Assembly (NCBI GenBank): GCA_001683735.1
Contig: LUGG01000022.1
Span: 868,001 to 932,000, forward strand
DNA length: 64,000 nt
Source of the DNA: Grifola frondosa
Lineage: Eukaryota; Basidiomycota; Agaricomycetes; Polyporales; Grifolaceae
Direction: 5' to 3'
A program made the position numbers and the translations under genes. Under the pieces are notes generated by a model. That model did no database searches, was not told the origin of the DNA, and saw only the letters and a list, made by a program, of their open reading frames with translations. Shown here piece after piece: positions 13,384 through 47,838 of this stretch; positions within the stretch are counted from its first letter, which is position 1, and each line of letters begins with the position of its first letter.

Positions 13384-14146
13384 TCCTTCCTGCGGACTAG
13401 CCTCCCGTGACCCATTGTACGTGGTTTCTAGTGACGTGGCGTCGAAAATTGGCTCTTTCTGCCGTGGTCGGTCGTCTGCCTCCTTTTGAATACTTGCCTA
13501 TTTTGGTTAAATACTTGCAATGCAATTTCATGTGTTCAATATTAATGTTGCTGCTACGGCGCGGACAGAGTGATGGGATAAACATAAAAAATGTTACATT
13601 CATCAAATTGAAAATTCTACGAAAAAAAAACCTAGAGGGAACCAGAAACATAACCAGAAATATCTGCATTCTCTAAAAAAACATATCTAGATTAAGGGAC
13701 AAAAACATACAAGCAGAAACATAACAAAAAATCTGTATTCTCTAAAAAACATATCTAGATTAAAGGACGAAAACATACGGATGGACGACATTAAGATCGA
13801 CATAACGCGAGAGGCACCGACAGATGGACTGCAAAACCGAACAGAGTATCTCAAGATCGATCGAACGGATATCTCAAGATCTTTCTGCAAGGGTTGTATA
13901 CGGCGTATCAGAGAAGGTGCGCACGTCACGGCGCATCGAGGAGCGAGAGCGCACTGGAGCTCGTCGTTGGCAACAGCGAGGGGAGGTCCCAGAGTGAACA
14001 GCCCGGATGCTCGCCATAAATGGACGGCTGAGAGCACGTGGCACGAATGTCCTGTAAGTACAGGCGAAACATGTATGAGCATGACTGTGATTACAATCGT
14101 TCATGTATATCGATTAACCTGTAAGTACATTGTATCATGTATGCTA
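13384..14146. other. Intergenic, with short tandem repeat
   Basis: No gene is recognised. An A-rich tandem duplication lies at 13645-13780. From 13790 the sequence is more GC-rich and may be a remnant of the region downstream of the DUF6533 fragment. Confidence 0.5.
13645..13780. repeat. A-rich tandem duplication, period about 68 bp
   Basis: Two adjacent copies contain GAAACATAAC, CTAAAAAA.CATATCTAGATT and GGAC.AAAACATAC in the same order. Confidence 0.75.
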
Positions 14147-18291: not shown

Positions 18292-19320
18292 TGTCGGCCT
18301 TTCGTGCACCTCCGCGGAAGGGAGAGAACTTCGAGCTTGCCGCCGATCTGAACAGCGAGTATCGAGAGAAACGCAAAGATGCGATCAAGAAAGTTATCGC
18401 GAACATGACCGTTCAGAAGGGTGAGTTTCGTCTTAATGACTAGAAGTATGCCTGCTAACGCGTCTGGTAAGACGTCAGCGGCCTGTTCCCCGACGTCCTG
18501 AAGAACATGCAAACCGACGATCTCGAACAGAAGAAGCTTGTTTACCTATATCTCATGAACTATGCCAAGACGCAACCCGAACTCGTCATCCTTGCCGTGA
18601 ACACTTTCGTGAAGGACACGGATGACCCAAATCCGCTCGTTCGCGTGCTCGCAATCCGTACCATGGGTTGTCTCCGCGCGGAGAAGATCATCGATTACCT
18701 GTGCGATCCCCTCCAGAAGTGTTTGAAGGACGACAATCCGTACGTGCGCAAGACAGCTGCGCTCTGTGTCGCGAAGCTGTATGACTTGAAACCGGAGCTT
18801 GTGATCGAGGACGGATTCCTGGAGCAGCTGCAGGAGATGATTGCGGACAGTAACCCCATGGTATGCAATATCCGTTCTATCATCAAATGCAGGCATTCTT
18901 ACGACCTTCAGGTTGTCGCGAACACAGTAGCAGCACTTACAGATATACATATCGCCGCCGTAGCTGCCGGATCGACGCGGGACGTGTTCGTCATCATGTC
19001 CAGCATCCTCAACAAGCTGCTCATCGCGCTCAACGAATGCTCAGCATGGGGACGCGTGGCCATCCTGAATGCCCTCGCCCGGTATGAGTCGCAGGACGAT
19101 CGGGAGAGCGAACACATCTGTGAGCGCGTCGTACCCCAATTCCAGCACGCAAATGCCAGTGTTGTACTCGCCGCCATAAAGGCGCGCTATAGTCTCTCAT
19201 TTTGTAGCACAGGCTCTAAGACATCTCTGAGCAGGTTATCATGATCCACATGCGGGGCATTCGCTCGGAGAACCTCACAAAGCAACTCGTCCGCAAGATG
19301 GCTCCACCACTGGTCACACT
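18292..19320 (+). pseudogene. AP-complex beta-adaptin, 5' part, interrupted by foldback element
   Basis: Exons 18292-18420, 18472-18860, 18912-19181 and 19235-19320 encode the N-terminal trunk of the large beta subunit of a clathrin adaptor (AP-1/AP-2 type): [76 protein letters not shown] and [20 protein letters not shown]. These are armadillo-like helical repeats that sit in the adaptor core on Golgi/endosome or plasma membrane. The intron at 19182-19234 begins GC rather than GT. The reading reaches MAPPLVTL and is cut by the element starting at 19321; the next residues lie at 23425. The sequence cannot tell AP-1 from AP-2 beta. Confidence 0.9.
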
Positions 19321-19499
19321 CACTACTGGTCACCTAGATTGTACTACAATATAGCACAAACCTGCCAAAGCCGTTGTGAGTTAGCAGGTCAGGTTGTAAA
19401 ATTGGGCTGTAATACAATGCTGGGCTGATTGTATTAGCTATTGTATTACAACAGTAGCATTGTAATACAATTAGGCTGCAATGTATTACAACTAGGGCT

Positions 19500-20465
19500 G
19501 GTTGTGATATTCCTATAGTACAATCAGGTCTCATTGTAATATCCAGTAAAACAACCAGGTCTGATTGTAATATTCGATAAAACAACCAGGGCTGATTGTA
19601 ATATATAGTAATACAACCAGGTCTAATTGTAATAGCCAGTAAAACAATCAGGCCTCATTGTAATATTTGATAAAACAACCAGGCCTCATTGTAATATTCA
19701 ATAAAACAACCAGGTCTGATTGTAATATTTGATAAAACAACCAGGCCTCATTGTAATATTTGATAAAACAACCAGGTCTGATTGTAATATTCGATAAAAC
19801 AACCAGGTCTGATTGTAATATTCGATAAAACAACCAGGTCTGATTGTAATATTCGATAAAACAACCAGGTCTGATTGTAATATTCGATAAAACAACCAGG
19901 GCTGATTGTAATATATAGTAATACAACCAGGTCTAATTGTAATATTTGATAAAACAACCAGGCCTCATTGTAATATTCAATAAAACAACCTGGTCTGATT
20001 GTAATATTGCATAAAACAATCAGGCCTCATTGTAATTCTAGATAATACAACCAGGTCTGGTTGTAATATTAATAAAACAACCAGGCCTCATTGTAATATT
20101 CAATAAAACAACCAGGTCTGATTGTAATATTCGATAAAACAACCAGGTCTGATTGTAATATAAGTAATACAACCAGGCCTCATTGTAATACTAGGTAATA
20201 CAACCAGGTCTGGTTGTAATATTTCATAAAACAATCAGGCTTCATTGTAATATTCAATAAAACAACCAGGTCTGATTGTAATATCCAGTAAAACAACCAG
20301 GCCTCATTGTAATACTAGGTAATACAACCAGGTCTGGTTGTAATATTCAATAAAACAATCAGGCCTCATTGTAATTCTAGATAATACAACCAGGCCGGTT
20401 GTAATATTCAATAGTACAATCAGGTCTGCTTGTAATACTTCATTATTACAATCTCACCTGGTTGT
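19500..20465. repeat. Foldback element 1 left-arm satellite, unit about 31 bp
   Basis: About thirty tandem units alternate between forms containing ACAACCAGGTCTGATTGTAA and ACAATCAGGCCTCATTGTAA, joined by TATTCGATAA-type spacers. Many units contain an imperfect 20-bp dyad of the form TACAATCAGGCCTGATTGTA, so each can fold or bind a dimer. Translations of this array are repeat artefacts, not genes. Confidence 0.95.
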
Positions 20466-22554
20466 ATCATCCATATCTGGCTAATAGGCTTCGGGGCAAA
20501 TACCTGATTTGTCATATGTTGTGGAAACATACCGCTTTTGGTATGTTTTGGCTTCAGCCACCATATGTTTTTCCCTCTATTCCTCCTTCAATTCTTCACC
20601 AATTCTCTTCATTCTGGGTGCATCTGAAAACGCTCATTCTGTACAGTTATATTATGTAAATATTTTAATATGTTATTCGAATTAAAACATACCATTCTGG
20701 GCAGTTACCCCAGAATGTTTTTCTGAATTCCCCCCTCAAATATTTACCAAATCTCTCCATTCCTTTATTCCCCTTGTCGCATGAATGTCCCATTTAATGT
20801 TCTAATTTACTTTGGCAGAATATGCGATGAAAAACATTCCATTTCTGGTGGGTGCAGGCTCAGCCACACCAGAATTCCTCCCCTTGCCCCTCCATCAGTT
20901 CTGCATGGAATTTCTTCATTTAACATTCCCCTTGCTCTAATTAATGTACTCTTTGATATTATCTACAGTACAGAGTCACAAAACTACATGAATATTCGTC
21001 TCCCCTTGCTTTGCTGGCTGATATTCACCCCAGATTGAGAAGTTAATACTTCACCAATTCACAGCGCATGAGAAACCGTCTGAAATGTAGAATTTGTCCT
21101 AATAAGGCGATCTTTACGCGAAATGAATCCGTCTGGTATTTGCCTATAATGCTCAGAACAATCCTGTGTGGCAACTCCCACACTGCCCCTCCAATATCTT
21201 CGTGTACATTTACTCATTTTTGTATTCCTTTTTGCGCACATTGTACACAGTATGTAGCGTCAAAATGAGCCACTTATGATGTCTTCATTCGCATTATTCA
21301 CAACTCTATGATGGAATCACTCAAATGTGATGATTCCTGCCTAGAATTATTTGTAGCTTCTGTGAAAATATGTAGACACATATAAATACACTACAAATGC
21401 GCCTGTACATGTTTCAGCAAAAATTAGAAGAATCTATGAAGATGTGGATGAGATATGAAGAGATTACCTTCAGAACACCCAATTGTGGCTGAATGCTCAG
21501 TACTGCTATTCCGAGCTCAAGTCACCTGTACAGTGAATCTGGAGCCAGATACACTGATCCATTGATTGCACATTCAGTTCCTCACCGAATTTTGTGATGT
21601 TAGGCTTGTTTTGAAGCTGTATTATATCTCTATTCAGCTCTGCAATCCGATCTTTTATTCACTTTGATATATTAGTACAATTGAGTAATCAGCTGGTGAA
21701 GCTGATAAGGAATTTGCTATCTCACTTCACGTCTGATAAGAATGATTGAGAGCTCATTTTAAAGCCCTTATGAATGCTAATAAAATAAAAAAATCCCCTC
21801 AAGATTTGATCAAAATCCCATCCGAAAAACAATGGAGGAAGTGTACCCATTACCCTTGAATACTGATGTGTGCATTGTGAAACGAATACCGGACGGATTC
21901 CTTTCGCGTAAAGATCGCCTTATTAGGACAAATTCTACTTTCAGACGGTTTCTCATGCGCGTGAATTGGTGAAGTATTAACTTCTCAATCTGGGGTGAAT
22001 ATCAGCCAGCAAAGCAAGGGAGACGAATATTCATTGTAGTTTGTGACTCTGTACTGTAGATAATATCAAAGAGTACATTAATTAGAGCAAGGGGAATGTT
22101 AAATGAAGAAATTCCATGCAGAACTGATGGAGGGGCAAGGGGAGGAATTCTGGTGTGGCTGAGCCTGCACCCACCAGAAATGGAATGTTTTTCATCGCAT
22201 ATTCTGCCAAAGTAAATTAGAACATTAAATGGGACATTCATGCGACAAGGGGAATAAAGGAATGGAGAGATTTGGTAAATATTTGAGGGGGAATTCAGAA
22301 AAACATTCTGGGGTAACTGCCCAGAATGGTATGTTTTAATTCGAATAACATATTAAAATATTTACATAATATAACTGTACAGAATGAGCGTTTTCAGATG
22401 CACCCAGAATGAAGAGAATTGGTGAAGAATTGAAGGAGGAATAGAGGGAAAAACATATGGTGGCTGAAGCCAAAACATACCAAAAGCGGTATGTTTCCAC
22501 AACATATGACAAATCAGGTATTTGCCCCGAAGCCTATTAGCCAGATATGGATGA

Positions 22555-23262
22555 TACAACCAGGTGAGATTGTAATAATGAAGTATTACAAGCAGACCTG
22601 ATTGTACTATTGAATATTACAACCAGGCCTGGTTGTATTATCTAGAATTACAATGAGGCCTGATTGTTTTATTGAATATTACAACCAGACCTGGTTGTAT
22701 TACCTAGTATTACAATGAGGCCTGGTTGTTTTACTGGATATTACAATCAGACCTGGTTGTTTTATTGAATATTACAATGAAGCCTGATTGTTTTATGAAA
22801 TATTACAACCAGACCTGGTTGTATTACCTAGTATTACAATGAGGCCTGGTTGTATTACTATATATTACAATCAGACCTGGTTGTTTTATCGAATATTACA
22901 ATCAGACCTGGTTGTTTTATTGAATATTACAATGAGGCCTGGTTGTTTTATTAAATATTACAACCAGACCTGGTTGTATTATCTAGAATTACAATGAGGC
23001 CTGATTGTTTTATGCAATATTACAATCAGACCAGGTTGTTTTATTGAATATTACAATGAGGCCTGGTTGTTTTATCAAATATTACAATTAGACCTGGTTG
23101 TATTACTATATATTACAATCAGCCCTGGTTGTTTTATCGAATATTACAATCAGACCTGGTTGTTTTATCGAATATTACAATCAGACCTGGTTGTTTTACT
23201 GGATATTACAATGAGACCTGATTGTACTATAGGAATATCACAACCAGCCCTAGTTGTAATAC
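22555..23262. repeat. Foldback element 1 right-arm satellite
   Basis: This is the inverted counterpart of the left array, with roughly 22 units, so it is shorter by several units. Forms and spacers are the same in reverse complement. The length difference shows that the arrays change independently. Confidence 0.95.
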
Positions 23263-23424
23263 ATTGCAGCCTAATTGTATTACAATGCTACTGTTGTAAT
23301 ACAATAGCTAATACAATCAGCCCAGCATTGTATTACAGCCCAATTTTACAACCTGACCTGCTAACTCACAACGGTTTTGGCAGGTTTGTGCTATATTGTA
23401 ATACCAAAATGGTGACCACAGCTG

Positions 23425-23729
23425 TCACACTCCTCTCCAATCCCCCGAAGTGCAGTGGGTTGCATTGCGGAACATCAACTTGCTTCTGCAAAAGCGGCCA
23501 GAACTGCTGTCCAGCGAGATGCGCGTGTTCTTCTGCAAGTACAATGATCCATTGTACGTGAAGGTGGAAAAGCTAGATATCATGGTGAGGCTCGCTGGCG
23601 AAAGCAACATCGATGCACTCCTGAGCGAACTGAAAGAGTGAGTATCGGTTTCGTTCTGCACTCGTGCAAGACTCACGCCTGGCTAATAGGTACGCATCCG
23701 AGGTGGATGTTGACTTTGTGCGGAAGCAG
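23425..23729 (+). pseudogene. AP-complex beta-adaptin, continuation after foldback element
   Basis: The exon resumes with VTLLSNPP, then [40 protein letters not shown] and [14 protein letters not shown]. After an intron at 23638-23689 it continues YASEVDVDFVRK and is followed by a GTGAG donor at 23730. This is exactly the sequence that follows MAPPLVTL in beta-adaptins. One C is missing in the run 23442-23446. Nothing downstream resembles the rest of the trunk, hinge or ear, so the gene is truncated as well as interrupted. An intact copy would have to exist elsewhere in the genome. Confidence 0.88.
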
Positions 23730-24355
23730 GTGAGATGAGCTCACGAAGTCCTGCAGGCAAGCAGCTCGGTGGGTAGCGGGCTTAGCGCACGGCTACATGT
23801 GGTGTATGCGGACGAGGATTGAGAACTGTGGGTGGCGGAGCGGAGAAGATTACTTTGACAAGATGTTGTTTGGGCGTCGTGTGTCTGTGGCATCAGACGG
23901 GGCTGTGGGGATCGGATCGTGGATGCTTGGTTCACACGCAAGCAGTTGCGGAGGGGCTCGAGCGGAACCCTCGAAGATGTCCAGGAGTGGGAGCGCAAAC
24001 GGGCAAGTACCTTTTCTTAATGGTTTGTGAGGTCTTCTGGGTCTGCACGGTTGAAGTCAAGACAATTGAGAGGATACAGACGAAAACGACCGCCAACCAA
24101 GTTGCTAAGATCAACAAGATGGTCAAGAATATTTAAAACGACAAGTACCGGAAATTCTCTGGTTGCTATGAGTGCTCTTTGAGGTCTCTTAATACTCTGA
24201 GATTGTCTAATAATTTTTTGTCTGAACTATCTCGATTGTCTGACAGCTCTGTATGTCTCACTGATCTTAATTTAAGATGTCTCAGATGTATTTAGATGAT
24301 TTAAGACGAAATTAGACATATCTGGATTTTGCTGATGTACCATTCAGTAGTCCCA
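23730..24355. other. Unassigned region after truncated beta-adaptin
   Basis: Frames at 23797-24136 have no recognisable product. 24160-24340 is rich in GTCT/AGAC and CTGA words, similar in style to 15170-15430, and may be another small element remnant. Confidence 0.4.
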
Positions 24356-24597
24356 TCCCATGATGTATCCTATCATGGATACATCACGGAAGAGAGATAC
24401 ATCCTCCATCTATGACAGATATATCCTTCACGGTGATGCATTCATCGAGAAACAGATACATCCCATGTATATATCCGCTATAGGCTCGGGCGCGCATTGG
24501 CAAAAGGGATGGCGTACGCGGCCTCGAACGACGCATGCCGCAAACACGAGTGCAAGACATATACCACTGAGCTACCCTGACACAACGATTCACTGAT
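24356..24597 (-). mobile_element. tRNA-derived SINE candidate
   Basis: On the minus strand TAGCTCAGTGG (A-box type) near 24575 is followed about 34 bases later by CGTTCGAGGCC (B-box type), the internal polymerase III promoter layout of tRNAs. No pairing acceptor stem is seen, so it is not a working tRNA. The body that follows has several GATACATC/GATATATC words. A related arrangement lies at 44.7-45.0 kb. Confidence 0.4.
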
Positions 24598-24850
24598 TAG
24601 CAGAAACTTCATCCACATATTGCTCAAACTGTGGATATACCAATTGTTTCGCATGCTTCTCAAGTCCATCAAGCTACGGATACATCCCCTACCCTGTAAT
24701 ATCAAACGCGTCTGGCTAATCATCGACACCATCAATCTACCTCCCCATGCACTGCACTAGAGGACGCCACTGGCTCGTCGGCGGGTGGCAATTGTGTATC
24801 CTCCTGAGTAGACATCGGGTCAGTATTATGATTACAACCCCCTAGCGCGC

Positions 24851-27800
24851 TCATACCATCCTGATCTTGCCCGTGAAGGCCTCTATGCTCCTGTGCAGTA
24901 GCCTGCTATATCGATCAGCTTGTCTGTGTGGATTCCGAACAGGTCAGCAACCAAATCTCCCGGACATGTTATCCACTTACTTGCGTGCATAACCCTCCTC
25001 TCCTGTCTTGGCATCCACATGGTGCTGCTCTGCTTGCTGTTCCCAATGCCCACGCCACCACCGGAATGTCCGTACCGTCCGCCGCATCTCCTCCTCAAGC
25101 AACAGGACTTCTTCATGCCAGCGCGATTGAAGAGCGCTGCGCCGGAACCAGTGCGTGCGCATGGCTAGCTCGACTTAGCGCACGTCCTTCTGAAAGCGTT
25201 GCTCACTCACCATCAGCCAAGAAGTTCTTGATCGCACCCTCCGATACCTCCCCACGAACGTGAAGTCCTCCCAGATCCAAGATGGAGTCTTGCGGCTGTC
25301 TCCCAGCTGCTCCTCCTCCGTGTACATTGCGAACGGTACGACATCCGTGGTCTTCAGCACACGGTAGCACGCATCATCTACTTGCCTAAGGCGATCAACG
25401 CACGTCTTGCACGACGATAGGTGTCAGCCGCACGACCGACCGCTTGTTGCTTGCGTTGAATCTTCCGCATCGCACGCGTGTTCTGGATTTGGCCTGAAAC
25501 GTTGCGGCGTTGGTATCTGAAAGAGAATGCGGTGATCAGGTGGGTACGAGTATCAGCCAAAGCATCATTCGCCTGGCCCTGGCGAACCTGGCGCTCCAGG
25601 TCCACGAGCGCTCTCATCGACGGGTGTGCAAGTACCAAAGGACTGTATGCGGACGGTAACTCGATGTTGATCGCGTTGATCTCGTCCCAGCCTTCTGCCT
25701 TCGCTTGCCGCGCACGCCCCGCCGTCGCCGTTGCCTTCCGTTTCTTCGGTGCAACAGTCGCTTGGCTCGCTGAGGTGTCATCCTCTTCGCTGTCCTCATC
25801 TTCTTCCTCCTCTCATCCTCATGACACCCTCGTTCACCGTCACTGAACCATGGAAAATTGATCGGAAGCGACCACCCATGGCAAGCCATCTGCACATCCA
25901 CCATAGCCTCATCTACCATGGGCGCGACAAACCGCACGTGTGTGACTCTCCAGCTTCGAGCCCTAACTTCAATTGCACGTGCTTTGCTTCGAGCTGTGTC
26001 TTCGTGGCCTCACTGCCGTCATCCGAAGTGAGATCTGCCAAAAGTGAAAACCTTGGCGAGACGGTCAGAGCACACCTCGCCCAAGAGAAACTAGGACAAC
26101 ACTCACTTGAGATTATCCAATGCGACGCCCTCCTCTACTGCGCCCAACATCCCCGCACCTTCCCCCCTGTGGCCTCCACCACAGCGTCCAAGTGTCGTGA
26201 TCTCTTTTTGGGATGGAGCTGCATATGTGATGGTTAACACATTGACTTGCTTAGAATCATATGCACTCACCGGCCTCCTTGCGAGGTTCATACGGATTTG
26301 GAAGATCCTTGTGGTTCCCCATATGTACCACTTGCTTCAGCCATGCGGCCTCTTCCCCCTTCCATTCAATGAGTTTTGGGTTCGGAATGTTGGCCTCGAC
26401 TTTCTGTAAATGTTCTCGAGCCTGTTGCAATTGCACAATGGCGGTCGAGTGTTTCTGGCGAAGCGCGTCGGCTAAAAATGGATTTCAGCGAGACAGTTGG
26501 CATCCAAAGGCATGATACAAACCAAGGCTGTGTATACGCCGAATGTTCATGTCAGAATGATGGTCATTGATGATGTCGTGCCTATGGCCCGAGGACATCT
26601 CCCGCGTGCGTCCCCCGAGGGCATTCAAGGAGGCCCAGATGCTTCCGGTGCTTCACCATCTGTCATCCCAACGCCCGGCAACCAATGGAATGAGAATTTG
26701 TACCGACATTCAGGACGATGGGCTGGCAAATGAAACTTGCCCACAGCGGCGAGGGTCCACGGGAAGTATCTGATCTGTATCGTCTTCAAGTCAGTCACAT
26801 GCTCCTTCATCCACTTCAGACGTGCTAGCAGTAGGATCCGGTACTGGCAATTTATATCGTACCCGGACACGTGTCTTAGTAGACCCATGTATCGTGTCAA
26901 TCCTGATAGCAAGGCGAAATCGACGTTGGCAAAGCTAGGAAAACCGTCATCAGTCCGGACTATTCACGACGTTGTCAATGACTTGCCGTTCTCCTTTCTG
27001 GAGATCCACCCCCCCGCCGGGCAACACGAACATGTGCCGCCCGCATGACAATCCCACCGTTCCGGACACCTTCGCCCAGTAGCCACCGTAGCCCATCGCC
27101 CGAAGTTCGCGCAAGTGCTCACCTGAACGACACCAATATAAAGTTAGCAGCCATACCGGGCGCACGCCACTCTGCTCTCATACCTCAGGTTTCCACGGAC
27201 CCAGGTGTCGTTGAAATCGGGTAAAATCGTCCTCATTGGCAAAATACGCCGCTCCCAGCGTTAAAGGAAAGTCGTTGGGGTCCGTTGGTTTCATCTTCTG
27301 ATTTTGATGAAAATTGCCATCGATTGTGTGAAAAAGAGATCCAGGAATCTGCGTCAGTCCATCAGCCAAACTCATGGCCGGCACGACAGTATAAGATACC
27401 CACTGAAGATGTTCGGGGCGCTCACACCATTTAGGATCCATGTTCATATCTGGTTGAGGGCACGCTGGACACAACACCGCCAGCGACCCTGCGCGCATGT
27501 CACGCGATGGCGGAACTCCCGCACGTTTGCAAGCCCGCAAGAAGGTAAACTCACGGCTGGCTGTCAACAGTTCTCGATAACGGTCCTGCCAAGTTTCGTT
27601 TTGTCAGTCAAATCCGCAGTACATAATCATCTAGCTTACCGGGACGACATCTGGACACACGTTGTCTATGAGCCGCCGTAGATATGTGAAGTAATCTCGC
27701 GCATTGACCTGACTTTGCAGAGACGCTAGATGGAAACAGCGAAGGCCATTGATCGTGAACGCCGTCCGAGGCGTTGTCCACGAACCTGGCCAGAAACCCG

Positions 27801-28597
27801 CTTGTATGAGCTGCAGAGGCTCTGGGCATGGCGTCGATCCAGCGGCCTGTGGACACGCGCAAAAGCGGACACAATATGTGTGAACGCCATGCTCGTGCAC
27901 AATGGTCATCATGCGAGTAGACAATGCTGTTGGGCACCGCGCGCCATGTGGCCCAACTCCAATTTTAACCCCAGGTCCCCAAAGAAGTCCGCCGCCAAAA
28001 GCTCCCCGGCACGGTCCACTTCTCAATCACATGGAATGGGTTGTGCTGGTGGTCCTCAAGAATACACTGCTTGCACACGGTCGGCCCATGGTAGCACTCT
28101 GTGCAGTGATACAAGTCGACGGGGGGGCAGCATCATTGGGGACTGCTGCACACCGTGAACAAGCCGTAATACCCAGATTCGTCACTCGCGCGCCATCCAT
28201 GCCCTCAGTGCGGGCGCCGCCCACTGGTCCAAAAATTGGCTCATTCGCACGGAGGGAGGCTGTATGGAAGATTTAGTGCAAATTTCTCGCACGCTCGTGG
28301 TATCACTCACTATGGTATTATTTAGACGTGCTTTTTTGAACGACTCGGAGGTAGAGTGAGTATCGGCAGAGTAGGCGGAGGCAATGGGAGAGGCAAAGCT
28401 CGCCGGTGGGGCAGAGTGCACGCAGGCGTACTACCACTACTTTGCAAGCTCGCGAATGGGTCCCACTTGGGTAAAGACTGCGTCGTTCGCGCAATGGCGT
28501 TGCTGGCATTGGTAGGGACCTTCGCTTGGAAACCCGCATTCAACGTGAAGCGAGCACTGCCCTTGCTCGGGCCCGGCGCTGAGGGGGGGCCAGACAT
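24851..28597 (-). CDS. Second KDZ transposase, different subtype
   Basis: The minus strand reads from MSGPPSAPGPSKGSARF (28597) through a zinc cluster (CSRC, CTEC, CKQC, then HQHNPFH) and FTINGLRCFHLASLQSQVNA. The core motifs are SLFHTIDGNFHQNQKM near 27.31 kb, VSGYDINCQYRI near 26.86 kb and GVGMTDGEAPE near 26.66 kb, the D-D-E positions of KDZ enzymes. Between 26.5 and 25.8 kb the frame is poorly resolved. The C-terminal part is clear: GWDEINAINIELPSAYSPLV, RYQRRNVSGQIQNTRAM, SWIWEDFTFVG and ALQSRWHEEVLLLEEEMRRT, with a last intron at 24980-24891 and stop near 24851. One C is missing at 28121-28127. It differs widely from the 9.7-13.4 kb enzyme. Confidence 0.82.
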
Positions 28598-30114
28598 GCA
28601 CAGTACGTCCAGTATAGCTCAAAAATTTTAGGTGGTCTCCCACCGGCACATGCCGATGGGATCGACCGATCCAGCTCTTCGCACATGGTCACAGTTTCTA
28701 TGTGGGCACTAAGTACAGCAAGCGCATAATGAATTTATTTAATCGATCCGTCTAACCACCAATATTGCTTCAGCCCTGGACCATGTGCGACTATGTCGGG
28801 ATGAAGGTGCGTGCGAGTTACCTGGGTGCAATGCAACGAAGTGTGAGGACTCACCGCGTCAAGACTTTCTTTATCATATCCACACTTGCGGCATATCGCC
28901 CAGCGCTGGGCCATGTAGGCCGACGTGAGCTCCTACGTGCAAGTCATCTGTGTGCTATGGTAATGGAGTGGCAAGTACTCACCGCGCCAAGTCTGTCAAG
29001 TCCACGCCGGCCCAACGAGGATCGGTCGAAGGCAGATGCAGCCTACCACGGTCGCCGTGGAGGCAACCATGGTTGCAGGCACGGGTGGTGGTCCCTCGCC
29101 ATAGAGACGAAGGACCCGTGGAACGAAATGAATGGCAGCCAGGACGAGGTGGGTGACAGCGAGAACGAGGAAGCGGCCAGGACGAGGTCGGAGCCAGCGA
29201 GACCATCGGTCGTGGGTGCAGCCTACCACGGTCGCCGTGAAGGCGACCATGGTTGCAGGCGCGGGTGGTGGTCCCTCGCCATGGAGGCGAAGGACCCGTG
29301 GAACAAAGTGGTAGCGGCCAGGACGAGATGGGTGACAGGGAGGACATGGGCGACGGAGTCATACAAGCGAGGAGGTGGAATATAGCGAAGGAGTTATGGC
29401 GGAGCTGGAATACTGCGCCTCGGTCACCTCGGGGACCAGCCTCGGTCCCCAGCCTCGGTCACGAGACTCGGTCACGCCAGCTTTGGTCACGAGACTCGGT
29501 CACGCCAGCTTCGGGCACGAGGTTCACGTTGTGGGCGGCTATCATGATTCACACTTCATTTGGTTCCGTATTCGTACGTCTGTACTCTCTCACTCCCACT
29601 CCCGCTGGCACATCCCTACTGCAAGACCCGTCTCAAGCCCTGCTCCATCAGAGCCCTGTCTTCACGACGGAGTCCTGGTATAGCTCCACTGCCCAGATAC
29701 CCCGTCCTCACGACGGAGATTTGGTAGTGTTCTTGCCGCCCGCCCCATCAACTTCAAACGTTCGCGCCTCCCTCCTTTACCGCCTCATCGTGCTCTGCTT
29801 CCCTTGTTGCTTCCCTCTTGTTTGTGTGCCTGCCCGTGTTAAGCGTCATCTGCATCCCCTGGTACGACATCTGAAGACTCGCACAGGTGTGCATACCGAG
29901 TGAGTGGATTCGCCTCGCCGTCATTGAATACTGACCTCGCCCCACGTACCACTTCCCTAGCCATGCCAGTCGAAAGAAGGGGACATGTTCTCGTGGGGCG
30001 GGATGCCATCATGGCAGCGTTGCATGCCCCCGCCCCGAAGGCCCACTTCGCGCGTCGGACTGCCGTACCCTCGCTTTGCTGGACGACCGCTGGTTGATTT
30101 CTTCGCCGAACATG
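28598..30114. other. Intergenic with tandem repeats
   Basis: No convincing gene. A 180-bp direct duplication lies at 29038-29340 and a short GGTCACGAGACTC array near 29440-29520. Frames from about 29930 (MPVERRGHVLVGRDAIMAAL) may be the true N-terminus of the next gene, but they do not join in frame. Confidence 0.5.
29038..29340. repeat. Direct tandem duplication, period 180 bp
   Basis: GCAGCCTACCACGGTCGCCG at about 29038 recurs at about 29218, and similarity continues through GGTGGTGGTCCCTCGCCAT and AAGGACCCGTGGAAC to the end of each copy. Both strands are open across it, so any translation is uncertain. Confidence 0.85.
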
Positions 30115-32482
30115 TCGTTCATTCCTGAGATCCCGATTCACAAGGAGGGGGAGGTGTTCGGCCTATGCGCAGATGCCATGTTGAACGTCTTCGAGCTGTG
30201 GAAGTGGCCGCAATTTTACGATCAAAGTCTTCCCCATGCCATGTCAGCTCCTGGCAATCCGGATCTGATCGGCAACCTGACTCACCTCTCATTTCCGATG
30301 GAGGATGACATGCACGTCTTACCTGTATTCACTGACTCCCGCGCTCCCTGGTGGCATTTCAACAGCAACGATTTCCACGTCGACTTGGAGATCCCAGGTG
30401 CGCAGGTAGGCTGGTTGTCTGCCCCGGTGGTCGTACGGTTGCGCGAGGCAGTTATTGAGGCGACCTTGTGCGTGCGTTCTACTTTGGACGGGGATGGAAA
30501 GATCGCTGCCGACAGCGCCCGTTTCATCTGGCGGCTAGTCCAACGCCTGCGATCTGCCGTCGTGAGGCTCGAAGAGATCCCAATGAGTACGTTTGAGGTG
30601 GCAGAGTGGTTCAGGGAGGTGCAACGCTTACTGTTAGAAGTCCCGCTTGGATTATCCACATGATTGTAGTTCACCCTCGCCTCGCCAACCCTGCATTTGA
30701 CGATTCCAGCCATGTTCTTCCCTTACGAGGCGTGTTGACGGGACACTTGTCGTTGGCTGAGAACCTGTTCCGCTGCGGTATTCCCGTGTGGTGGGTTAGG
30801 CCCGCTCACACATTGACAACGGCCACCGTGATCATGCGCGTCGTCAACATGATACCTGCCTCCATCCATTTCAATCCGAAGACTCTCATGAAGCATGGCA
30901 AGTATACGCACGTTGCTCCTAGGTGGCTCCACACCAGCACATTCGACAACTTGTCCGAATCTATAGTTCAGCAGCTGCACCACTTCAGCCTGACCAATCG
31001 CCCTACGTTACGCAAACTCGCTCCGGTCTGGCAAGAGACCAGTCAGAGGAGCAATGACGACGGAGTCACCGGGCAGGCGGACGACTCACCTGCGCTCGCG
31101 GTCGGATACCCCAACGTCGATGATATCAACCACGGTGGAGCTGCTGAGGATTGGGAGGTTGAGGTAGAGGTTGCAGGTGTGAACATTCCTTGCAAGTCTC
31201 CTGTGCCCGAGGGGTCCGAGCTGGGCCGGCGGGGACGGTAGAAATTTGCGACCCCTTACCCACCTCCCAGGGCAGAACTCCACAGCCGCGATCATGTGAT
31301 TGCCGTCCTGGTGCGTGATATCTTTTCGCTGCGGGTGAATTTAGCAAGCTCACACAAATTGATGTAGGTCGTAAACAGAAAACAAATGCGCCTGGTGCTC
31401 GGAATGGCGGGACGTCGGATGTGCGAGCAGCCGCACAGCGCAAGCGCGGGCAGTTACATCCCGTAACACAGGCGAGTTTGGGCGTCGCTCTAGAGCCATG
31501 CCAATCAGCTCCACCTCTCTGGGTGCCCCGCGTTTGTCCTGGTTGGGCCCAAGCTCTGCCTGCGTTCAGGCTGATGCCCAAAAGTGACTCTCCTCCCCAG
31601 CACTTGTTCTCGCTCCCTCCCCCCCATTTATTCTATGCTGAGGGTCAACTCACGGGCGCGCGGATGCATAATTGGTTGCGTATCAGGATGTATTTATCGC
31701 TCACGGCGCTCAATCCGCCGGCAGACGGAAAGTGTTGATGACAACGACGCAGTGGCGCATTGCGTTAGAAGGCAAATATTGTGCAATCCCCTACCAAGCT
31801 TTAGTCGTCAAACCGGTCTCCACCCCTGAGGACATAGCAAAACTGCCATCGAGCCCTCTGTTGAGTGAGGAAAGACGCAAGCGCACTTTGCATCGTGAGC
31901 AAGGTGGCTCCACTGCGGTCACCAGTGCCGAAAAGCGTCGGCAGAAACGGATCGCTGATCGGATCGACATCGCTGTGCGTTTCGGAGTCCACGCCGGCTT
32001 TGCGTCTTATCGTGCAGACCTCACTTTACCCCAGTGGCGGAGCTGCTACGTCTCACCGCCATAGCCGACACCGATCGCGCCTTGTGGGCCGAGGTTGTTT
32101 GGGAGTTGGCATCATGAATTTTCGCCTCGAGCTGTTGGACATCGACCGGGATTTGTTAGCTTCCCTGTATGGAGATGAGGACATGTCTGCGCTGCAGACA
32201 GGCAGTTGGAGCTGTTGAGGATCTGGCATGGAGAAGGCTCTTTGGCCCGATGTACGAGCGAGACACCTGTGCAGATGAGCTTGGCGCGGAGGATTGGCAA
32301 ATCCGTCGGGAGGCACATATCCGGTGGGCCCGGGCACTACAGTCTTGGCCACTGTCGACCTGGCATGGCGCGATGAAGACCTTCAAGACCGTCGCGCTTA
32401 TGACGCCTTCGAGGCTCACGTGGTGGATGTGTACTGCCGTTCATTCTACGAAGTGCGCGGCCGCCTTCCAACTGTGCGCTAG
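30115..32482 (+). CDS. Agaricomycete-specific hypothetical protein
   Basis: From MSFIPEIPIHKEGEVFGL the reading gives LNVFELWKWPQFYDQSLPHA, RAPWWHFNSNDFHVD, VAEWFREVQRLLLEV and, after a frame change near 30640, WIIHMIVVHPRLANPAF, LAENLFRCGIPVWWVRPAHT and HGKYTHVAPRWLHT. Further on come FSLPPPHLFYAEGQLTG, MHNWLRIRMYLS, TTTQWRIALEGKYCAIPY, NFRLELLDIDRDLLASL and YDAFEAHVVDVYCRSFYEVR before a stop at 32482. I know this order of blocks, including the LF.AG.PVW..RP signature, from large uncharacterised protein families of mushrooms. No catalytic motif is visible. Several frame changes and a poorly resolved stretch at 31240-31570 remain. The true start may be upstream near 29930. Confidence 0.6.
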
Positions 32483-33710
32483 TGACACCTGCATCCTTCG
32501 CCCGTCATCGGAACACTTAGATATCATTGCTCGCCGTATGTTGTGTTGTACATGTAGGCTCGTTTCTTCAGATCGAAATTAAGATGTTTGGCTGCAAAGC
32601 GCGTGAGGATAGTCAGACGCCTTAACTTGGCATTAAGACATCTTATCGGGGGCGGCCGTGACGACGCCGGAGCGCATTAGTCGGGAGGGCATTAGTCTCG
32701 TGCCTAGTCACCCGTTCAGACGTTCAGTGGGTGTCTTACTTTGCCGCTGGCGTGCTGATTATTGCAGGCGCATCGTGTTGCACCCATTCCAGTTGGCGTG
32801 GCGTGGGACCGACGAGTGTGCAACCTCGACTGACTTGGCCAAAATCCATGGCGCCGCAGAACGAGGAGCAGAGGGCGCGATTGCTGAAGGCGGCCCAAAC
32901 AAAGCTATTACGAGAAAAAAAAGTGAGTTTTGACCACTTCGAGGAGGCTTCGAAGCTGATGAGGATGATACAGGTCACTGCAAATGACGGCGCCCACTCC
33001 ATTGACCCCCGTGGACGCCAGGTGCTACCACGTCCGCTATCAGTTCGCCACCGCCCAGCAGCGGTTCGCCACCGCCCACCAGAATGCACCTGTGAGTGTC
33101 ACATTCATGGCGCTATGCGCAACGCTAACCACCGTCGTTAGAATCGATCGTCTGCCTATCTTGGGCCGCCCCTTCTTGCCAGACGAAATTCCTTGGCTGC
33201 ACACACTTTTGGAGACATGGGGTATTATAACGACCTGCCCAAATTTGTGGAGGACTTCCACGCGATTATCATCACACGAGGACGAACCCAAGCGTGCTCG
33301 CGGCATGGGTGAGAGCCAAGGACGACTGGATGACTCAGGGCGACATCATTCTCGAGTTGATTGAAGACTATCTAGTGGTGGACATATTGGAACATCGACA
33401 GGGGGACAATCTCAGGGCATGTGGAAGGGACTAACTGAGGTAGTATTCCGAATTCAGTGGATCATGACTGCGGCAGAGTTCGATTGCATGCCGCGGAGGT
33501 GGGGCATCCATTATCTGACACAGGAGTGGCTGAAATCATTGAGGACGAGGCGTTGGAAATTGAGGATTAGACGAGCGTGGCCGCATGTATGTACGAGCGT
33601 AGAGTATTCCGTGGTTGGGGTGAAATTACCTTGTTGCTCAATTGACTTGCATGCATGAATTTCGGACAAGGAAGGGGCGATGACATTGAACAAGTAGTAT
33701 CGAAGTACAT
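32483..33710. other. Unassigned region, possible gene remnant
   Basis: Plus-strand frames include MAPQNEEQRARLLKAAQTKL near 32850 and DDWMTQGDIILELIEDYLVV near 33330-33370, both with coding-like composition. They do not join into a gene I recognise. Confidence 0.3.
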
Positions 33711-34020
33711 TCAAACACGAGCCAATTTGCACACTACTCCAGCCATATACTGATCAACAAAATACCGAGCGCCGTCGCACGCGGAATCCGCAATATGCAG
33801 TTTCATGTGCGGGCTCGTCCCAAGCATGATGAACGCGGTTTCCCTGGGAGGATGAATGAGATTGGCAGAGCGGAGGTAATGTAACCGCTTACTGGTCCAA
33901 GTAGACTCCCGGGTATAGCCCACACACTACTACATACGCAGGCACCTGCTTCGTGCACTCCTTCACGCGCTCGTTCAGCTGCAATGACGACGCTGTCGCA
34001 CTCGCCAGTGACTCGTCATC
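33711..34020 (-). pseudogene. 3' part of split gene with second RNase H1 N-terminal-type domain
   Basis: Minus-strand reading directly next to foldback element 2 gives DPDDESLASATASSLQLNER, then VPAYVVVCGLYPGVYLDQ. After a GTAAGC...CAG intron it continues ETAFIMLGTSPHMKLHIADS and ARYFVDQYMAGVVCKLA to a stop near 33711. The VVVCG..PGVY and FV.QYMAGVV pattern is that of the RNase H1 N-terminal (Cauli_VI-like) domain. The 5' part with another such domain lies on the far side of the element at 38756-39210; joining the two across one 7-bp duplication keeps the frame. Confidence 0.65.
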
Positions 34021-34189
34021 CACTACTGGCTACCTGTATTGTAATACAATATAGCATCAACCTGCTACAACCGTTGTGAGTTAGCTGGTCAGGTTGTCAA
34101 AAATGCCGTAGTACAATACTGGGCAGATTGTAATATATATTGTATTACAATAGGAGCATTGTAATACAGCTAGGCCACATTTTTTTACA

Positions 34190-35385
34190 ATTAGGGCTGC
34201 TTGTAATATTTCTATAGTACAATCTGACCTGATTGTAATACTAGATAATACAATCAGGCCAGGTTGTAATTTTCGATAAAACAATCAGGTCAGATTGTAA
34301 TATTCAGTAGTACAATCTGACCTGGTTGTAATATTCAATAAAACAATCTGGTCAGATTGTAATATTCAATAGTACAATCTGACCTGGTTGTAATACTGAA
34401 TAATACAATCAGGCCAGGTTGTAATTTTCGATAAAACAATCTGGTCAGATTGTAATATTCAGTAGTACAATCTGACCTGGTTGTAATATTCAATAAAACA
34501 ATCTGGTCAGATTGTAATATTTAATAGTACAATCTGACCTGGTTGTAATACTGAATAATACAATCAGGCCAGGTTGTAATTTTCGATAAAACAATCTGGT
34601 CAGATTGTAATATTGAATAGTACAATCAGGTCAGGTTGTAATACTAGATAATACAATCAGGTCAGATTGTAATACTAGATAATACAATCAGGCCAGGTTG
34701 TAATTTTCGATAAAACAATCAGGTCAGATTGTAATATTTAATAGTACAATCAGGTCAGGTTGTAATACTAGATAATACAATCAGGCCAGATTGTAATACT
34801 AGATAAAACAATCTGGTCAGATTGTAATATTCAATAGTACAATCTGACCTGGTTGTAATACTAGATAATACAATTAGGCCAGGTTGTAATTTTTGATAAA
34901 ACAATCTGGTCAGATTGTAATATTCAATAGTACAATCAGGTCAGATTGTAATATTTAATAGTACAATCAGGTCAGGTTGTAATACTAGATAATACAATCA
35001 GGCCAGATTGTAATTTCAACAGTACAATCTGGTCAGATTGTAATACTGATGATACAATCAGGCAGGTTGTAAATTCAATAAACAATCAGCCAGATTGTAA
35101 TACTACTGGTAATACAATCTGACCTGATTGTAATCTCAATAAAACAACCTGGTCAGATTGTAATATTCAGTAGTACAATCTGACCTGGTTGTAATACTAG
35201 ATAATACAATCAGGTCAGATTGTAATTTTTGATAATACAATCAGGCCAGATTGTAATTTTCGATAAAACAACCAGGTCAGATTGTAATACTACTGGTAAT
35301 ACAATCTGGCTGATTGTAATATTCAGTAGTACAATCAGGTCAGGTTGTAATACTTCATTATTACAATCCCACCTGCTTGTATTAT
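34190..35385. repeat. Foldback element 2 left-arm satellite
   Basis: Roughly forty units of about 31 bp alternate ACAATCTGACCTGGTTGTAA with ACAATCAGGCCAGGTTGTAA and related forms, with spacers such as TATTCAATAG or TTTTCGATAA. The core is the same dyad as in element 1, but the unit variants differ (CTGACC/GGTCAG forms dominate here), so each element has homogenised its own array. Confidence 0.95.
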
Positions 35386-37404
35386 CCATATCAGGATAAT
35401 AGAGCTCGGGGTAAATACAGGATTTGTCACATGTTGCGGAAACATACCACATTTGGTATGTTTTAAACATAGCCACCATATGTTTTCTCCTCCACTACTC
35501 CCTCAATTCTGCACGATATTCTTCATTTTAGGTTCGTCTGAAAGCGGTCGTCGAGTATAATTAGATTATGTACATATCTTTGTATGATATTAAAATAAAA
35601 ACATACCATTCTGGGCAACCACCCCAGAATGTTCTGCTGCATTGCTCCTCAAATCTTCACCAAATTTCTTAATTCCTTCATCCCCTTGGTCGCATTGATA
35701 TCCTATTTATTACTTCTCATTTGTTTGGCAGAATATGTGACGGAAAACATACCATTTCTGGTGGTGCAGGCTCAGCCACACCAGAATTCCTCCCCCTCCT
35801 CCTCCCTCAATACTTCATGGATTCTCTTTATTTAACATTCCCTAGTCCTACATATGTTACTTAATTTTATGTAATAGATACAGCCCCAAACAAGATAATA
35901 TTTCGTCTCCTCCTGCTTTGCTGGCAGGGATCCTCCTAATTTGGGAAATGAATATTGGACGGAATCTGGAACGAAGGGCACCGTATAAAAGGTGTATTTT
36001 ATCCTAATAAGGCGATGTTTACGCCGAAAATTCCGTCCGGTACTCGCTTCAGACACACACAAACAGTATTCAGGGGTGGCTGAAACATTTCCCCATCCTT
36101 CCTGAATGGGATTTGCCCTAATTTCAAGCGGACTTTTGGATGATTCCTTTATTGGGGTATCATTATGAGCTATACATTCACGCTTATCAGAGACGATCCC
36201 ATATGGTGAAATCCTTATCAGCTTCCCCTATAGATTATACAATTGTCTACTACACGAAATAAATAACAGATCGGATGGAGGAAGGATAAAGGAATATAAC
36301 AGCTTCCAAACAAGTCCAAGATCATAAAAATGAGGAAGATTGAGGGAGTAATTAGGAATCAGTGTACTTGCCCCTGATTCACTGTACAGGTGACTTGAGC
36401 CCGGTACAGCAGTATTGAGGTTTCAGCCACAATTAGGTATTTTCCTCATATCTCCCTCACTTCCTCATGTATTCTTTAATGCTTTGTTGTATATTGTAGA
36501 GCTATATGAGTGTTATATTATGGAACTTTTGATGTTTTTAAAGCTGCCAGAAAAATCCTATCAGGGGGATATTACATTTCAGTGTTTGGGATTCAGCATT
36601 ATCAAATATGCATCAAACAGTAAATAGGAGATTTTATGAGACTATATACATGGAGATGTTACAAAAGAGATAAAAAAAGAGCAACTGGGGGAAGGATATT
36701 GGGTGATCAGTGTGGCAACTGCCACCCAAGTTGTTGTGTGTGTCCTGAAGCGAGTACCGGACGGAATTTTCGGCGTAAACATCGCCTTATTAGGATAAAA
36801 TACACCTTTTAGACGGTGCCCTTCGTTCCAGATTCCGTCCAATATTCATTTCCCAAATTAGGAGGATCCCTGCCAGCAAAGCAGGAGGAGACGAAATATT
36901 ATCTGTTTGGGGCTGTTACTATACATAAAATTAAAGTAACATATGTAGGACTAAGGGGAATGTTAAATAAAGAGAATCCATGAAGTATTGAGGGAGGAGG
37001 AGGGGAGGAATTCTGGTGTGGCTGAGCCTGCACCACCAGAAATGGTATGTTTTCCGTCACATATTCTGCCAAAATGAGAGTAATAATAAGGACTATAAGC
37101 GACCAAGGGGATGAAGGAATTAAGAAATTTGGTGAAGATTTGAGGAGCAATGCAGCAGAACATTCTGGGGTGGTTGCCCAGAATGGTATGTTTTTATTTT
37201 AATATCATACAAAGATATGTACATAATCTAATTATACTCGACGACCGCTTTCAGACGAACCTAAAATGAAGAATATCGTGCAGAATTGAGGGAGTAGTGG
37301 AGGAGAAAACATATGGTGGCTATGTTTAAAACATACCAAATGTGGTATGTTTCCGCAACATGTGACAAATCCTGTATTTACCCCGAGCTCTATTATCCTG
37401 ATAT

Positions 37405-38585
37405 GGATAATACAAGCAGGTGGGATTGTAATAATGAAGTATTACAACCTGACCTGATTGTACTACTGAATATTACAATCAGGCCAGATTGTATTACCAG
37501 TAGTATTACAATCTGACCTGGTTGTTTTATCGAAAATTACAATCTGGCCTGATTGTATTATCAAAAATTACAATCTGACCTGATTGTATTATCTAGTATT
37601 ACAACCAGGTCAGATTGTACTACTGAATATTACAATCTGACCAGGTTGTTTTATTGAAAATTACAATCAGGTCAGATTGTATTACCAGTAGTATTACAAT
37701 CTGGCCTGATTGTTTTATGAATTCAACCTGCCTGATTGTATATCAGTATTACAATCTGACCAGATTGTACTTTGAATATTACAATCTGACCTGATTGTAT
37801 TATCTAGTATTACAACCTGACCGATTGTACTATTAAATATTACAATCTGACCTGATTGTACTATGAATATTACAATCTGACTCAGATTGTTTATCAAAAT
37901 TACAACCTGGCCTATTGTATTTCTAGTATTACAACCAGGTCAGATTGTACTATTGAATATTACAATCTGACCAGATTGTTTTATCTAGTAATTACAACTG
38001 GCCTGATTGTATTATCTAGTATTACAACCTGACCTGATTGTACTATTAATATTACAATCTGACCGATTGTTTTATCGAAATTACAACCTGGCCTGATTGT
38101 ATTATCTAGTATTACAATCTGACCTTGTATTATTAGTATTACAATTGACCTGATTGTACTATTAATATTACAATCTGACCAGATTGTTTTATCGAAAATT
38201 ACAACCTGGCCTGATTGTATTATTAGTATTACAACCAGGTCAGATTGTACTATTAAATATTACAATCTGACCAGATTGTTTTATTGATATTACAACCAGG
38301 TCAGATTTGTACTACTGAATATTACAATCTGACCAGATTGTTTTATCGAAAATTACAACCTGGCCTGATTGTATTATTCAGTATTACAACCAGGTCAGAT
38401 TGTACTATTGAATATTACAATCTGACCAGATTGTTTTATTGATATTACAACCAGGTCAGATTGTACTACTGAATATTACAATCTGACCTGATTGTTTTAT
38501 CGAAAATTACAACCTGGCCTGATTGTATTATCTAGTATTACAATCAGGTCAGATTGTACTATAGAAATATTACAAGCAGCCCTAA
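37405..38585. repeat. Foldback element 2 right-arm satellite
   Basis: Inverted counterpart of the left array with a similar number of units. Between about 37.7 and 38.2 kb several units are short by one or a few bases. Confidence 0.95.
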
Positions 38586-38755
38586 TTGTAAAAAAATGTG
38601 GCCTAGCTGTATTACAATGCTCCTATTGTAATACAATATATATTACAATCTGCCCAGTATTGTACTACGGCATTTTTGACAACCTGACCAGCTAACTCAC
38701 AACGGTTGTAGCAGGTTGATGCTATATTGTATTACCAAAATGGTGACCACAGCTG

Positions 38756-39210
38756 CGTCATCAGGGTCGAGCTTGGGTGGTCGACGTGGGCGAACCATGC
38801 GGCAGAAGACGAAGGAAATGGACAAGCAGGGGATGTGGGCCGAGGGGGGTGAGTTGGCGTGGTGGGGACGGCACGGGTGTGAAGGGAGGAGGGGACTCTG
38901 AGGCCTTGGAGGCTGGGAGCACTATGGGCTGCTGGGCCATCTGCAGAATCCTCGTCTTCCTCGTTCAGAACACCCAACGGGCCGGGACCATGAATGAACG
39001 CCTCACGGGCCTCCGCAAGTGTCTTATAACTGGCGAACGCCGCATGGGGCACTCCACTCACAAGAGAGCTTGTCAATCCCCTAAAAATCGACAGTCAATC
39101 TTAAGACTCATCAAGAAGGAAGATGACTTGCCAATTGGCGAATAACCCGGTGCGTTTTCCCTTCCAGATGACGTAAATCTTGCTTTTGCCACCGGGCTGG
39201 CCTTGGGAAT
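38756..39210 (-). pseudogene. 5' part of split gene with first RNase H1 N-terminal-type domain
   Basis: The minus strand encodes KSKIYVIWKGKRTGLFANWQ. After a GTCATC...TTTTAG intron it gives GLTSSLVSGVPHAAFASYKT and LAEAREAFIHGPGPLGVL, another RNase H1 N-terminal-type domain, then an acidic and Pro/Ser-rich linker. The linker ends at the foldback element in a frame reading CRMVRPRRPPKLDPDD, which joins the sequence at 34020. A one-base shift within the linker must be assumed. The start codon was not found; stops precede the domain near 39.21 kb, so an upstream exon is likely. The gene is divergent from the family gene at 40443. Confidence 0.65.
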
Positions 39211-47560: not shown

Positions 47561-47838
47561 TAGATAGAGCTTCCGAATAATAACTGGGCATCACCTTCGC
47601 CCACAAATATAGAGGGGTATATGCGAAATAGTGGTGTGGTTTAGTCTACGATCATGTGGCGGCAGGTCTATAAATTATGATGCCAAGTACATTATTCCAA
47701 GAATGCGACACCGAAGTGTAACGCCCAACTTCAGTCGCGTTCCATTCCCGCAAGCATCTTTCTTCTAAGGTTAGCATTAGCGCATGCAAGGTGTCAACGA
47801 TTCATATCATACGAACCAGAACATATCACTGTCCTAGT

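What the first reader, a model, noticed from the sequence alone, without database searches (positions are those of the whole stretch)
19321..38755. Unrecognised family of satellite-armed foldback elements with 7-bp target duplications
Two elements (19321-23424 and 34021-38755) share tips CACTACTGG.../CAGCTGTGG..., inverted arms of 1.5-2.0 kb built around a 31-bp satellite, a unique inner arm, and a related loop. Both have exact 7-bp target duplications (TCACACT, CGTCATC). Neither carries a transposase. The architecture resembles the Drosophila foldback element Galileo (P superfamily, 7-bp duplications, tandem repeats in long arms), but I know of no such element described from mushrooms. The link to the P superfamily is inference; the left tip CACTA is also CACTA-like.
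Basis: partly seen in the sequence, partly recalled or inferred. Interest (0 to 1): 0.87.

Follow-up and report, generated by a model that had tools for sequence, protein, structure and literature searches.

The report
Foldback transposons of the KDZ superfamily
Two pieces of mobile DNA in a maitake-mushroom genome have long mirror-image arms built from a repeated 31-letter unit; longer copies with the same ends carry a gene of a known mushroom transposase family (KDZ), not the fruit-fly P family, and one pair of copies looks as if it flipped the DNA between them.

Summary
Both elements have the stated ends, satellite arms and exact 7-bp duplications, and their joined flanks match continuous empty sites elsewhere in the genome (one for element 1, three for element 2). 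The host, identified as Grifola frondosa, holds 28 elements with two exact tips: 21 have exact 7-bp duplications, 2 have one mismatch, 1 has 6 bp, 2 carry exchanged duplications, 2 have none. The P-superfamily idea is not supported. Two ~14-kb copies with the same tips, the same kind of satellite and their own 7-bp duplications carry a KDZ transposase gene (PF18758) with a CxC2 cysteine cluster. Seven-bp duplications and 5'-CA..TG-3' ends are published for Kyakuja, a KDZ lineage. The window elements are best read as non-autonomous foldback relatives: they share ~165 bp of end sequence (96-97% for element 2, 81-83% for element 1) and satellite, but no interior, with the KDZ copy. One opposed pair has exchanged duplications; re-inverting the 3 kb between them restores both duplications and an open frame, as in Galileo inversions, though misassembly is not excluded. 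My literature searches showed no KDZ foldback. New here: a satellite-armed foldback branch of KDZ, convergent with Galileo.

The parts
19314..19320 (.). left 7-bp target duplication TCACACT of element 1
   Evidence: single copy at the paralogous empty site C5:311902-312421
19321..23424 (+). element 1 (family I copy), non-autonomous foldback element of 4104 bp
19321..19485 (+). left terminal domain of element 1, tip CACTACTGGTCACC
   Evidence: 93.3% to its own right end, 80.7% to the left end of the 14-kb KDZ element
19488..20442 (+). 31-bp satellite, left arm of element 1 (about 31 units)
20443..21136 (+). inner arm, left copy (boundaries approximate)
   Evidence: 41 genomic matches listed, a lower bound
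21137..21884 (.). loop of element 1; inverted in one related copy (C1:3335741-3340071)
21885..22578 (-). inner arm, right copy (boundaries approximate)
   Evidence: 98.9% to the left copy
22579..23257 (-). 31-bp satellite, right arm of element 1 (about 22 units)
23260..23424 (-). right terminal domain of element 1, tip CAGCTGTGGTCACC
   Evidence: 82.6% to the right end of the 14-kb KDZ element
23425..23431 (.). right 7-bp target duplication TCACACT
34014..34020 (.). left 7-bp target duplication CGTCATC of element 2
   Evidence: single copy at the empty site C34:368184-368283
34021..38755 (+). element 2 (family II copy), non-autonomous foldback element of 4735 bp
34021..34185 (+). left terminal domain of element 2, tip CACTACTGGCTACC
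   Evidence: 97.0% to the left end of the 14-kb KDZ element, 93.9% to its own right end
34186..35352 (+). 31-bp satellite, left arm of element 2 (about 38 units)
35353..36052 (+). inner arm of element 2, left copy (approximate)
36053..36744 (.). loop of element 2 (approximate); the inner segment is inverted in the copy C32:297216-303858
36745..37423 (-). inner arm of element 2, right copy (approximate)
37424..38590 (-). 31-bp satellite, right arm of element 2 (about 38 units)
38591..38755 (-). right terminal domain of element 2, tip CAGCTGTGGTCACC
   Evidence: 95.8% to the right end of the 14-kb KDZ element
38756..38762 (.). right 7-bp target duplication CGTCATC
18507..19244 (+). upstream part of an adaptin-like gene copy interrupted by element 1
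   Evidence: Adaptin_N, 8.2e-55; flanks 92-94% to an uninterrupted paralog

Best explanation
Elements 1 and 2 are non-autonomous foldback members of a cut-and-paste transposon family of the KDZ superfamily, most likely Kyakuja-like. Two ~14-kb copies with the same ends carry the KDZ transposase gene. The transposase is inferred to recognise the shared ~165-bp ends, and probably the 31-bp satellite units, which would act as arrays of binding sites for its cysteine-cluster (CxC2) domain. It moves what lies between such ends and inserts it with a 7-bp target duplication. The long inverted arms also recombine. Within a copy this flips the loop and may homogenise the arms; between opposed copies it inverts the DNA between them. 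Shown: shared ends, 7-bp duplications, empty sites, the KDZ gene inside tip-bounded 14-kb copies at two sites, and exchanged duplications at one pair in this assembly. Inferred: that this transposase moves the small elements, that the satellite is its binding array, and that recombination rather than misassembly made the inversion.
For: Two 14-kb copies (C7:86242-100381 and C7:115027-129245) have the same exact tips and different exact 7-bp duplications, CGCTGTC and GTATAAG. In the first, read in full, satellite arms reach almost to the gene; in the second, 1.48 kb of satellite in the left arm was read and the right arm was not. KDZ and CxC2 domains. The KDZ region (3.78 kb) is 99.87% identical between the two. 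Element 2's ends are 97.0% and 95.8% identical to the matching 14-kb ends, closer than its own two ends are to each other, 93.9%. Apart from KDZ/CxC, no Pfam domain was found in any of the 22 ORFs of at least 75 aa listed upstream of the gene's conserved part. No CA..TG plus 7-mer pair encloses the gene between the satellite arms (0 found, 0.2 expected). Inner arms are absent from the 14-kb copy, which argues against a KDZ gene dropped into such a foldback. Kyakuja is published with 7-bp duplications and 5'-CA..TG-3' termini (PMC12730594, section 3.2 read). Empty sites. Exchanged duplications at C36.
Against: The link is by shared ends, not by an observed transposition. The published Laccaria Kyakuja families have no terminal inverted repeats, whereas these have kilobases of them. 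Family I ends are only 81-83% identical to the 14-kb ends on the matching side, so cross-mobilisation of element 1 is less certain. The non-autonomous interiors share nothing with the KDZ copy outside satellite, so they are not simple internal deletions. Two of the 28 elements have no duplication, nor does a related element at about C2:3254790-3256265. The transposase gene is not shown to be functional: a naive spliced reading is open over 1073 codons, but the deposited protein is a 438-aa model. The dyad signal in the satellite is modest (11-127 of 2000 shuffles reach it). Arms within a copy are only slightly more alike than arms of different copies.
Confidence: 0.85

Rival explanations
1. 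P-superfamily (Galileo-like) foldback elements: a P-type transposase moves them and the resemblance to Galileo is by descent.
For: 7-bp duplications, long internally repetitive arms, exchanged duplications at an inversion; the same traits are described for Galileo (PMC2775673 passages; PMC3688188 abstract).
Against: The only two copies with these exact tips found to hold a transposase gene carry KDZ. No P-element profile match in the genome, though the control was silent, so that is uninformative.
Confidence: 0.03
2. The KDZ gene is a passenger: a separate KDZ transposon inserted into a satellite-armed element that is mobilised by an unknown transposase.
For: The genome is full of KDZ genes (128 domain matches), so nesting is plausible a priori; published Kyakuja lack TIRs, so a nested copy would be hard to see.
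Against: Both 14-kb copies hold the gene; no enclosing CA..TG plus 7-mer pair was found between the arms; the gene ends about 190 bp from the right satellite arm; the inner arms that a foldback would have are missing; duplication length and termini fit Kyakuja itself.
Confidence: 0.1
3. Arms and exchanged duplications are assembly artefacts.
For: Opposed 4.5-5 kb repeats can be mis-oriented by an assembler; the C36 inversion rests on one assembly. I had no reads.
Against: This cannot explain 21 of 28 exact duplications at different sites or the continuous empty sites. It remains possible for the C36 inversion alone.
Confidence: 0.05

Closest known systems
Kyakuja (KDZ superfamily), as described in Laccaria and other Agaricomycotina (PMC12730594)
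   Same: KDZ transposase, 7-bp target duplications, 5'-CA..TG-3' termini
   Different: Laccaria families are described as lacking terminal inverted repeats; here arms run from about 1.5 kb (element 1, right) to 3.7 kb (C32:297216, left), with many non-autonomous foldback copies. No Tet_JBP match lies within either 14-kb copy (22 matches in the genome).
Galileo (P superfamily, Drosophila)
   Same: foldback form, tandem repeats inside long arms, 7-bp duplications, middle segment in opposite orientation between copies, exchanged duplications at an inversion
   Different: transposase superfamily is KDZ, not P; by eye no target consensus in the 21 duplications, whereas Galileo has GTAGTAC. Galileo sequences were not compared letter by letter.
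Zisupton / Dileera (KDZ)
   Same: KDZ superfamily
   Different: 8-bp duplications are reported for both; here 7 bp
Mutator-type foldbacks such as Tm1 (seen in a search listing only)
   Same: foldback form
   Different: no MULE domain found in the scanned ORFs of the 14-kb copy; duplication length differs (9-11 bp for Mutator, recalled)

Membership tests
KDZ superfamily | KDZ transposase domain inside a copy with the same ends | tested here: met
   PF18758 matches inside C7:86242-100381 and C7:115027-129245; the deposited protein of this gene matches positions 1-217 at 1.9e-60
KDZ superfamily | CxC cysteine cluster associated with KDZ | tested here: met
   PF18803 6.4e-39
Kyakuja lineage | 7-bp target duplication | tested here: met
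   21 of 28 exact; of the other 7, 2 have one mismatch, 2 are exchanged, 1 has 6 bp, 2 have none
Kyakuja lineage | 5'-CA..TG-3' termini | tested here: met
   CACTACTGG...CCACAGCTG
Kyakuja lineage | no terminal inverted repeats (as described in Laccaria) | tested here: not met
   kilobase inverted arms
Kyakuja lineage | placement in the Kyakuja clade of a transposase tree | not tested
   no labelled Kyakuja/Dileera/Zisupton proteins were fetched
Zisupton / Dileera | 8-bp target duplication | tested here: not met
   7 bp
P superfamily | P/THAP transposase in the element or genome | tested here: inconclusive
   PF12017 no match, control silent; the elements' long copies carry KDZ instead
CACTA/EnSpm | 3-bp duplication and CACTA at both ends | tested here: not met
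   7-bp duplications; right tip CAGCTG
Foldback form (descriptive, not a lineage) | long, internally repetitive inverted arms | tested here: met

The most novel reading that the evidence does not exclude
KDZ transposons have independently evolved the Galileo/foldback life style. Satellite arms act as arrays of transposase-binding sites for the cysteine-cluster domain. Satellites turn over between families (31-bp, 22-bp and perhaps 21-bp units) while tips and an inner module persist. Opposed copies reshape mushroom chromosomes by inversion.
Probability: 0.5. Interest if true: 0.78.

Novelty: new variant of a known kind. Interest (0 to 1): 0.62.

Why it matters
Foldback elements are often orphans whose transposase is unknown (recalled). 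Here the likely transposase-bearing partner sits in the same genome, recent enough that two copies are 99.87% identical in the gene region. That ties the foldback form to a further transposase superfamily (KDZ, abundant in this mushroom genome) and makes the idea that satellite arms are binding arrays testable. It also gives a candidate natural inversion made by such elements in a fungus, with the same exchanged-duplication signature as in Drosophila.

Tried and rejected
P superfamily: rejected because the transposase-bearing copies are KDZ; the P profile search itself was uninformative. CACTA: rejected on duplication length and right tip. Nested KDZ insertion: tested by looking for CA..TG plus 7-mer pairs between the arms (none) and by the absence of inner arms; not fully excluded. 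I first took the inner-arm relatives on C8 (14-15 kb apart) for a second autonomous element; reading C8:330682-348000 showed 2.9-kb inverted arms around ORFs that look like copia polymerase (my recognition, not a profile search), so it gives no second transposase. TET/JBP cargo: none of the 22 matches lies in the 14-kb copies. The 22 ORFs of at least 75 aa starting at 2850-7200 of L061 (14-kb copy) gave no Pfam match and one 160-aa piece gave no homolog. The first gene-model attempt failed and was rerun with wider intron limits. In one search satellite units were anchored on TTGTA, so conservation of those letters there is by construction.

Full report
OBSERVATION. Element 1 (19321-23424) and element 2 (34021-38755) begin CACTACTGG and end CCACAGCTG, and are flanked by exact 7-bp repeats TCACACT and CGTCATC. 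TRF finds 31-bp arrays in both arms of both, and the repeat finder shows the inverted arms. From outside in, each side is a ~165-bp terminal domain, the satellite and a unique inner arm; a loop lies in the middle.

HOST AND COPIES. The window is C19:868001-932000 of a 39.06-Mb genome. A deposited protein matching the 14-kb copies' gene is A0H81_06621 of Grifola frondosa, on a contig of 1,982,350 bases, the length of C7 here, so I take the host to be Grifola frondosa. Exact tips were searched genome-wide: 32 left, 30 right. I paired neighbours by hand into 27 left-right elements plus one with two right tips (C13:6753-11017). Of these 28, 21 have exact 7-bp duplications, 2 have one mismatch (C1:3335741, C19:542068), 1 has 6 bp (C6:1981571), 2 carry exchanged duplications (the C36 pair), and 2 have none (C2:3398926 and C13). 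Five left tips and one right tip had no exact partner and were left out. A related family with tips CACTAGTAG/CAGCTGTAG and a 22-bp satellite has two paired copies, one with an exact 7-bp duplication and one with a single mismatch; the degenerate left-tip pattern used gave 36 matches against 7 for its reversed control, so single hits of it may be chance. A further relative with CACTAGTGG-like tips (about C2:3254790-3256265) shows no duplication.

EMPTY SITES. Element 1 lies in an adaptin-like gene copy (Adaptin_N 8.2e-55 upstream). The joined flanks with one TCACACT match C5:311902-312421 gaplessly over 520 bp at 95%. Element 2's joined flanks match three other places over 517 query bases at 98, 97 and 94%. 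I read 100 bases of one, and it has a single CGTCATC. Element 2 also splits a short open frame on the minus strand at codon 12.

THE TRANSPOSASE-BEARING COPIES. Two tip pairs are ~14 kb apart: C7:86242-100381 and C7:115027-129245, with different exact duplications CGCTGTC and GTATAAG. I read the first in full. It has satellite arms of about 2.6 and 2.8 kb and, between them, a gene with a CxC2 cysteine cluster (6.4e-39) and a KDZ transposase domain (4.6e-33 in one open stretch); the deposited protein covers the whole KDZ profile (1.9e-60). Of the second copy I read the left 1.66 kb, which is tip plus satellite, the right junction, and 3.78 kb around the KDZ gene, 99.87% identical to the first copy. 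Other KDZ genes in this genome are at most 42% identical over partial lengths. A spliced reading is open over 1073 codons with seven short introns, but it is a naive model that differs from the deposited 438-aa one. Twenty-two further ORFs of at least 75 aa starting between 2850 and 7200 of L061 have no Pfam match.

LINK BETWEEN SMALL AND LARGE COPIES. Element 2's left and right ends are 97.0% and 95.8% identical to the matching 14-kb ends; its own two ends are 93.9% identical to each other. Element 1's ends are 80.7% and 82.6% to the same. Outside satellite, neither element shares interior sequence with the 14-kb copy. So they share ends and arms, as non-autonomous elements do, but are not simple deletion derivatives.

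ARMS AND REARRANGEMENT. Inner arms within a family I copy are 97.0-100% identical (8 copies); arms of different copies range from 95.8 to 99.7% with a mean of 97.9% (112 comparisons), so homogenisation within copies is only a slight signal. Seven of those eight copies hold the loop (one in two pieces). Six of the seven can be oriented by their tips, and in one of them, C1:3335741, the loop is inverted relative to element 1; C13, with two right tips, cannot be oriented. The inner segment of C32:297216-303858 is inverted relative to element 2. The pair C36:87289-92351 and C36:95401-99942 lies in opposite orientation with exchanged duplications. Re-inverting the 3,049 bases between them pairs CATTTTT with CATTTTT and GCCGAAG with GCCGAAG, and a 197-aa frame then reads through the second site where the assembled order breaks it. 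This is the signature described for Galileo inversions in Drosophila (PMC2775673, passages read). Misassembly of this one place is not excluded, and chimeric arms, the further Galileo test, were not examined. The inverted segment also holds a Plavaka transposase fragment (3e-31).

MECHANISM. The best account is cut-and-paste transposition by the KDZ transposase acting on shared ends. By analogy with Galileo, whose THAP domain binds repeated sites in long arms (PMC3688188, abstract read), I infer that the satellite is a binding array for the cysteine-cluster domain. The satellite unit has a modest dyad symmetry: 20-22 of 31 positions, reached by 11-127 of 2000 shuffles depending on the arm. That is weak support only.

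CLASSIFICATION AND NOVELTY. Kyakuja in Laccaria makes 7-bp duplications and has CA..TG termini but no TIRs, whereas Zisupton and Dileera make 8-bp ones (PMC12730594; abstract, sections 3.1.1 and 3.2 and passages read). These elements therefore fit KDZ, Kyakuja-like, with an added foldback form; no tree was made. In the listings of the full-text searches (30 of 68 papers shown; none; 8 of 8; 8 of 369; 3 of 3; 8 of 12) I saw no paper on foldback KDZ elements or on foldback transposons in mushrooms; I saw titles and abstract beginnings only, and the library holds only open-licence papers. The nearly complete CH1 genome paper mentions Copia and Gypsy densities but no such element in the passages I saw.

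OPEN. The inner-arm module recurs at about 80% in elements with other satellites or none and its origin is unknown.

Noticed in passing
window 1-13414 (C19:868001-881414): The left part of the window belongs to a large palindrome centred near 1658: 1-3316 is self-complementary at 96.5% and 9989-13414 matches C19:857899-861327 in inverse orientation at 99.88%. A KDZ gene sits in each arm.
   Followed up: partly
window 26335-27339, minus strand: KDZ transposase fragments between elements 1 and 2 (2.2e-15 for 26643-26933).
   Followed up: partly
window 46942-52700 and 54631-60429, with a third partial copy at 62045-63998: Tandem duplicated blocks at 80.5% identity.
   Followed up: no
C57:21065-23196 (L031) and C6:1918718-1921877 (L034): The same left tip with the same 20-base left flank occurs on a small contig and on C6, which suggests a retained second haplotype or a duplication.
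   Followed up: no
C8:331595-347543: Inverted arms of 2.9 kb related to the inner arm, without satellite in the arms, around ORFs that look like a copia element (copia by recognition).
   Followed up: partly
C7:1137415-1142431: Foldback with 99.7% identical arms of at least 2.1 kb and 21-bp satellites, sharing the inner arm at 82%; its tips were not located.
   Followed up: no
genome-wide: 22 Tet_JBP dioxygenase matches (21 over the cut-off), several about 1.4-1.9 kb from KDZ matches, none inside the 14-kb copies.
   Followed up: partly
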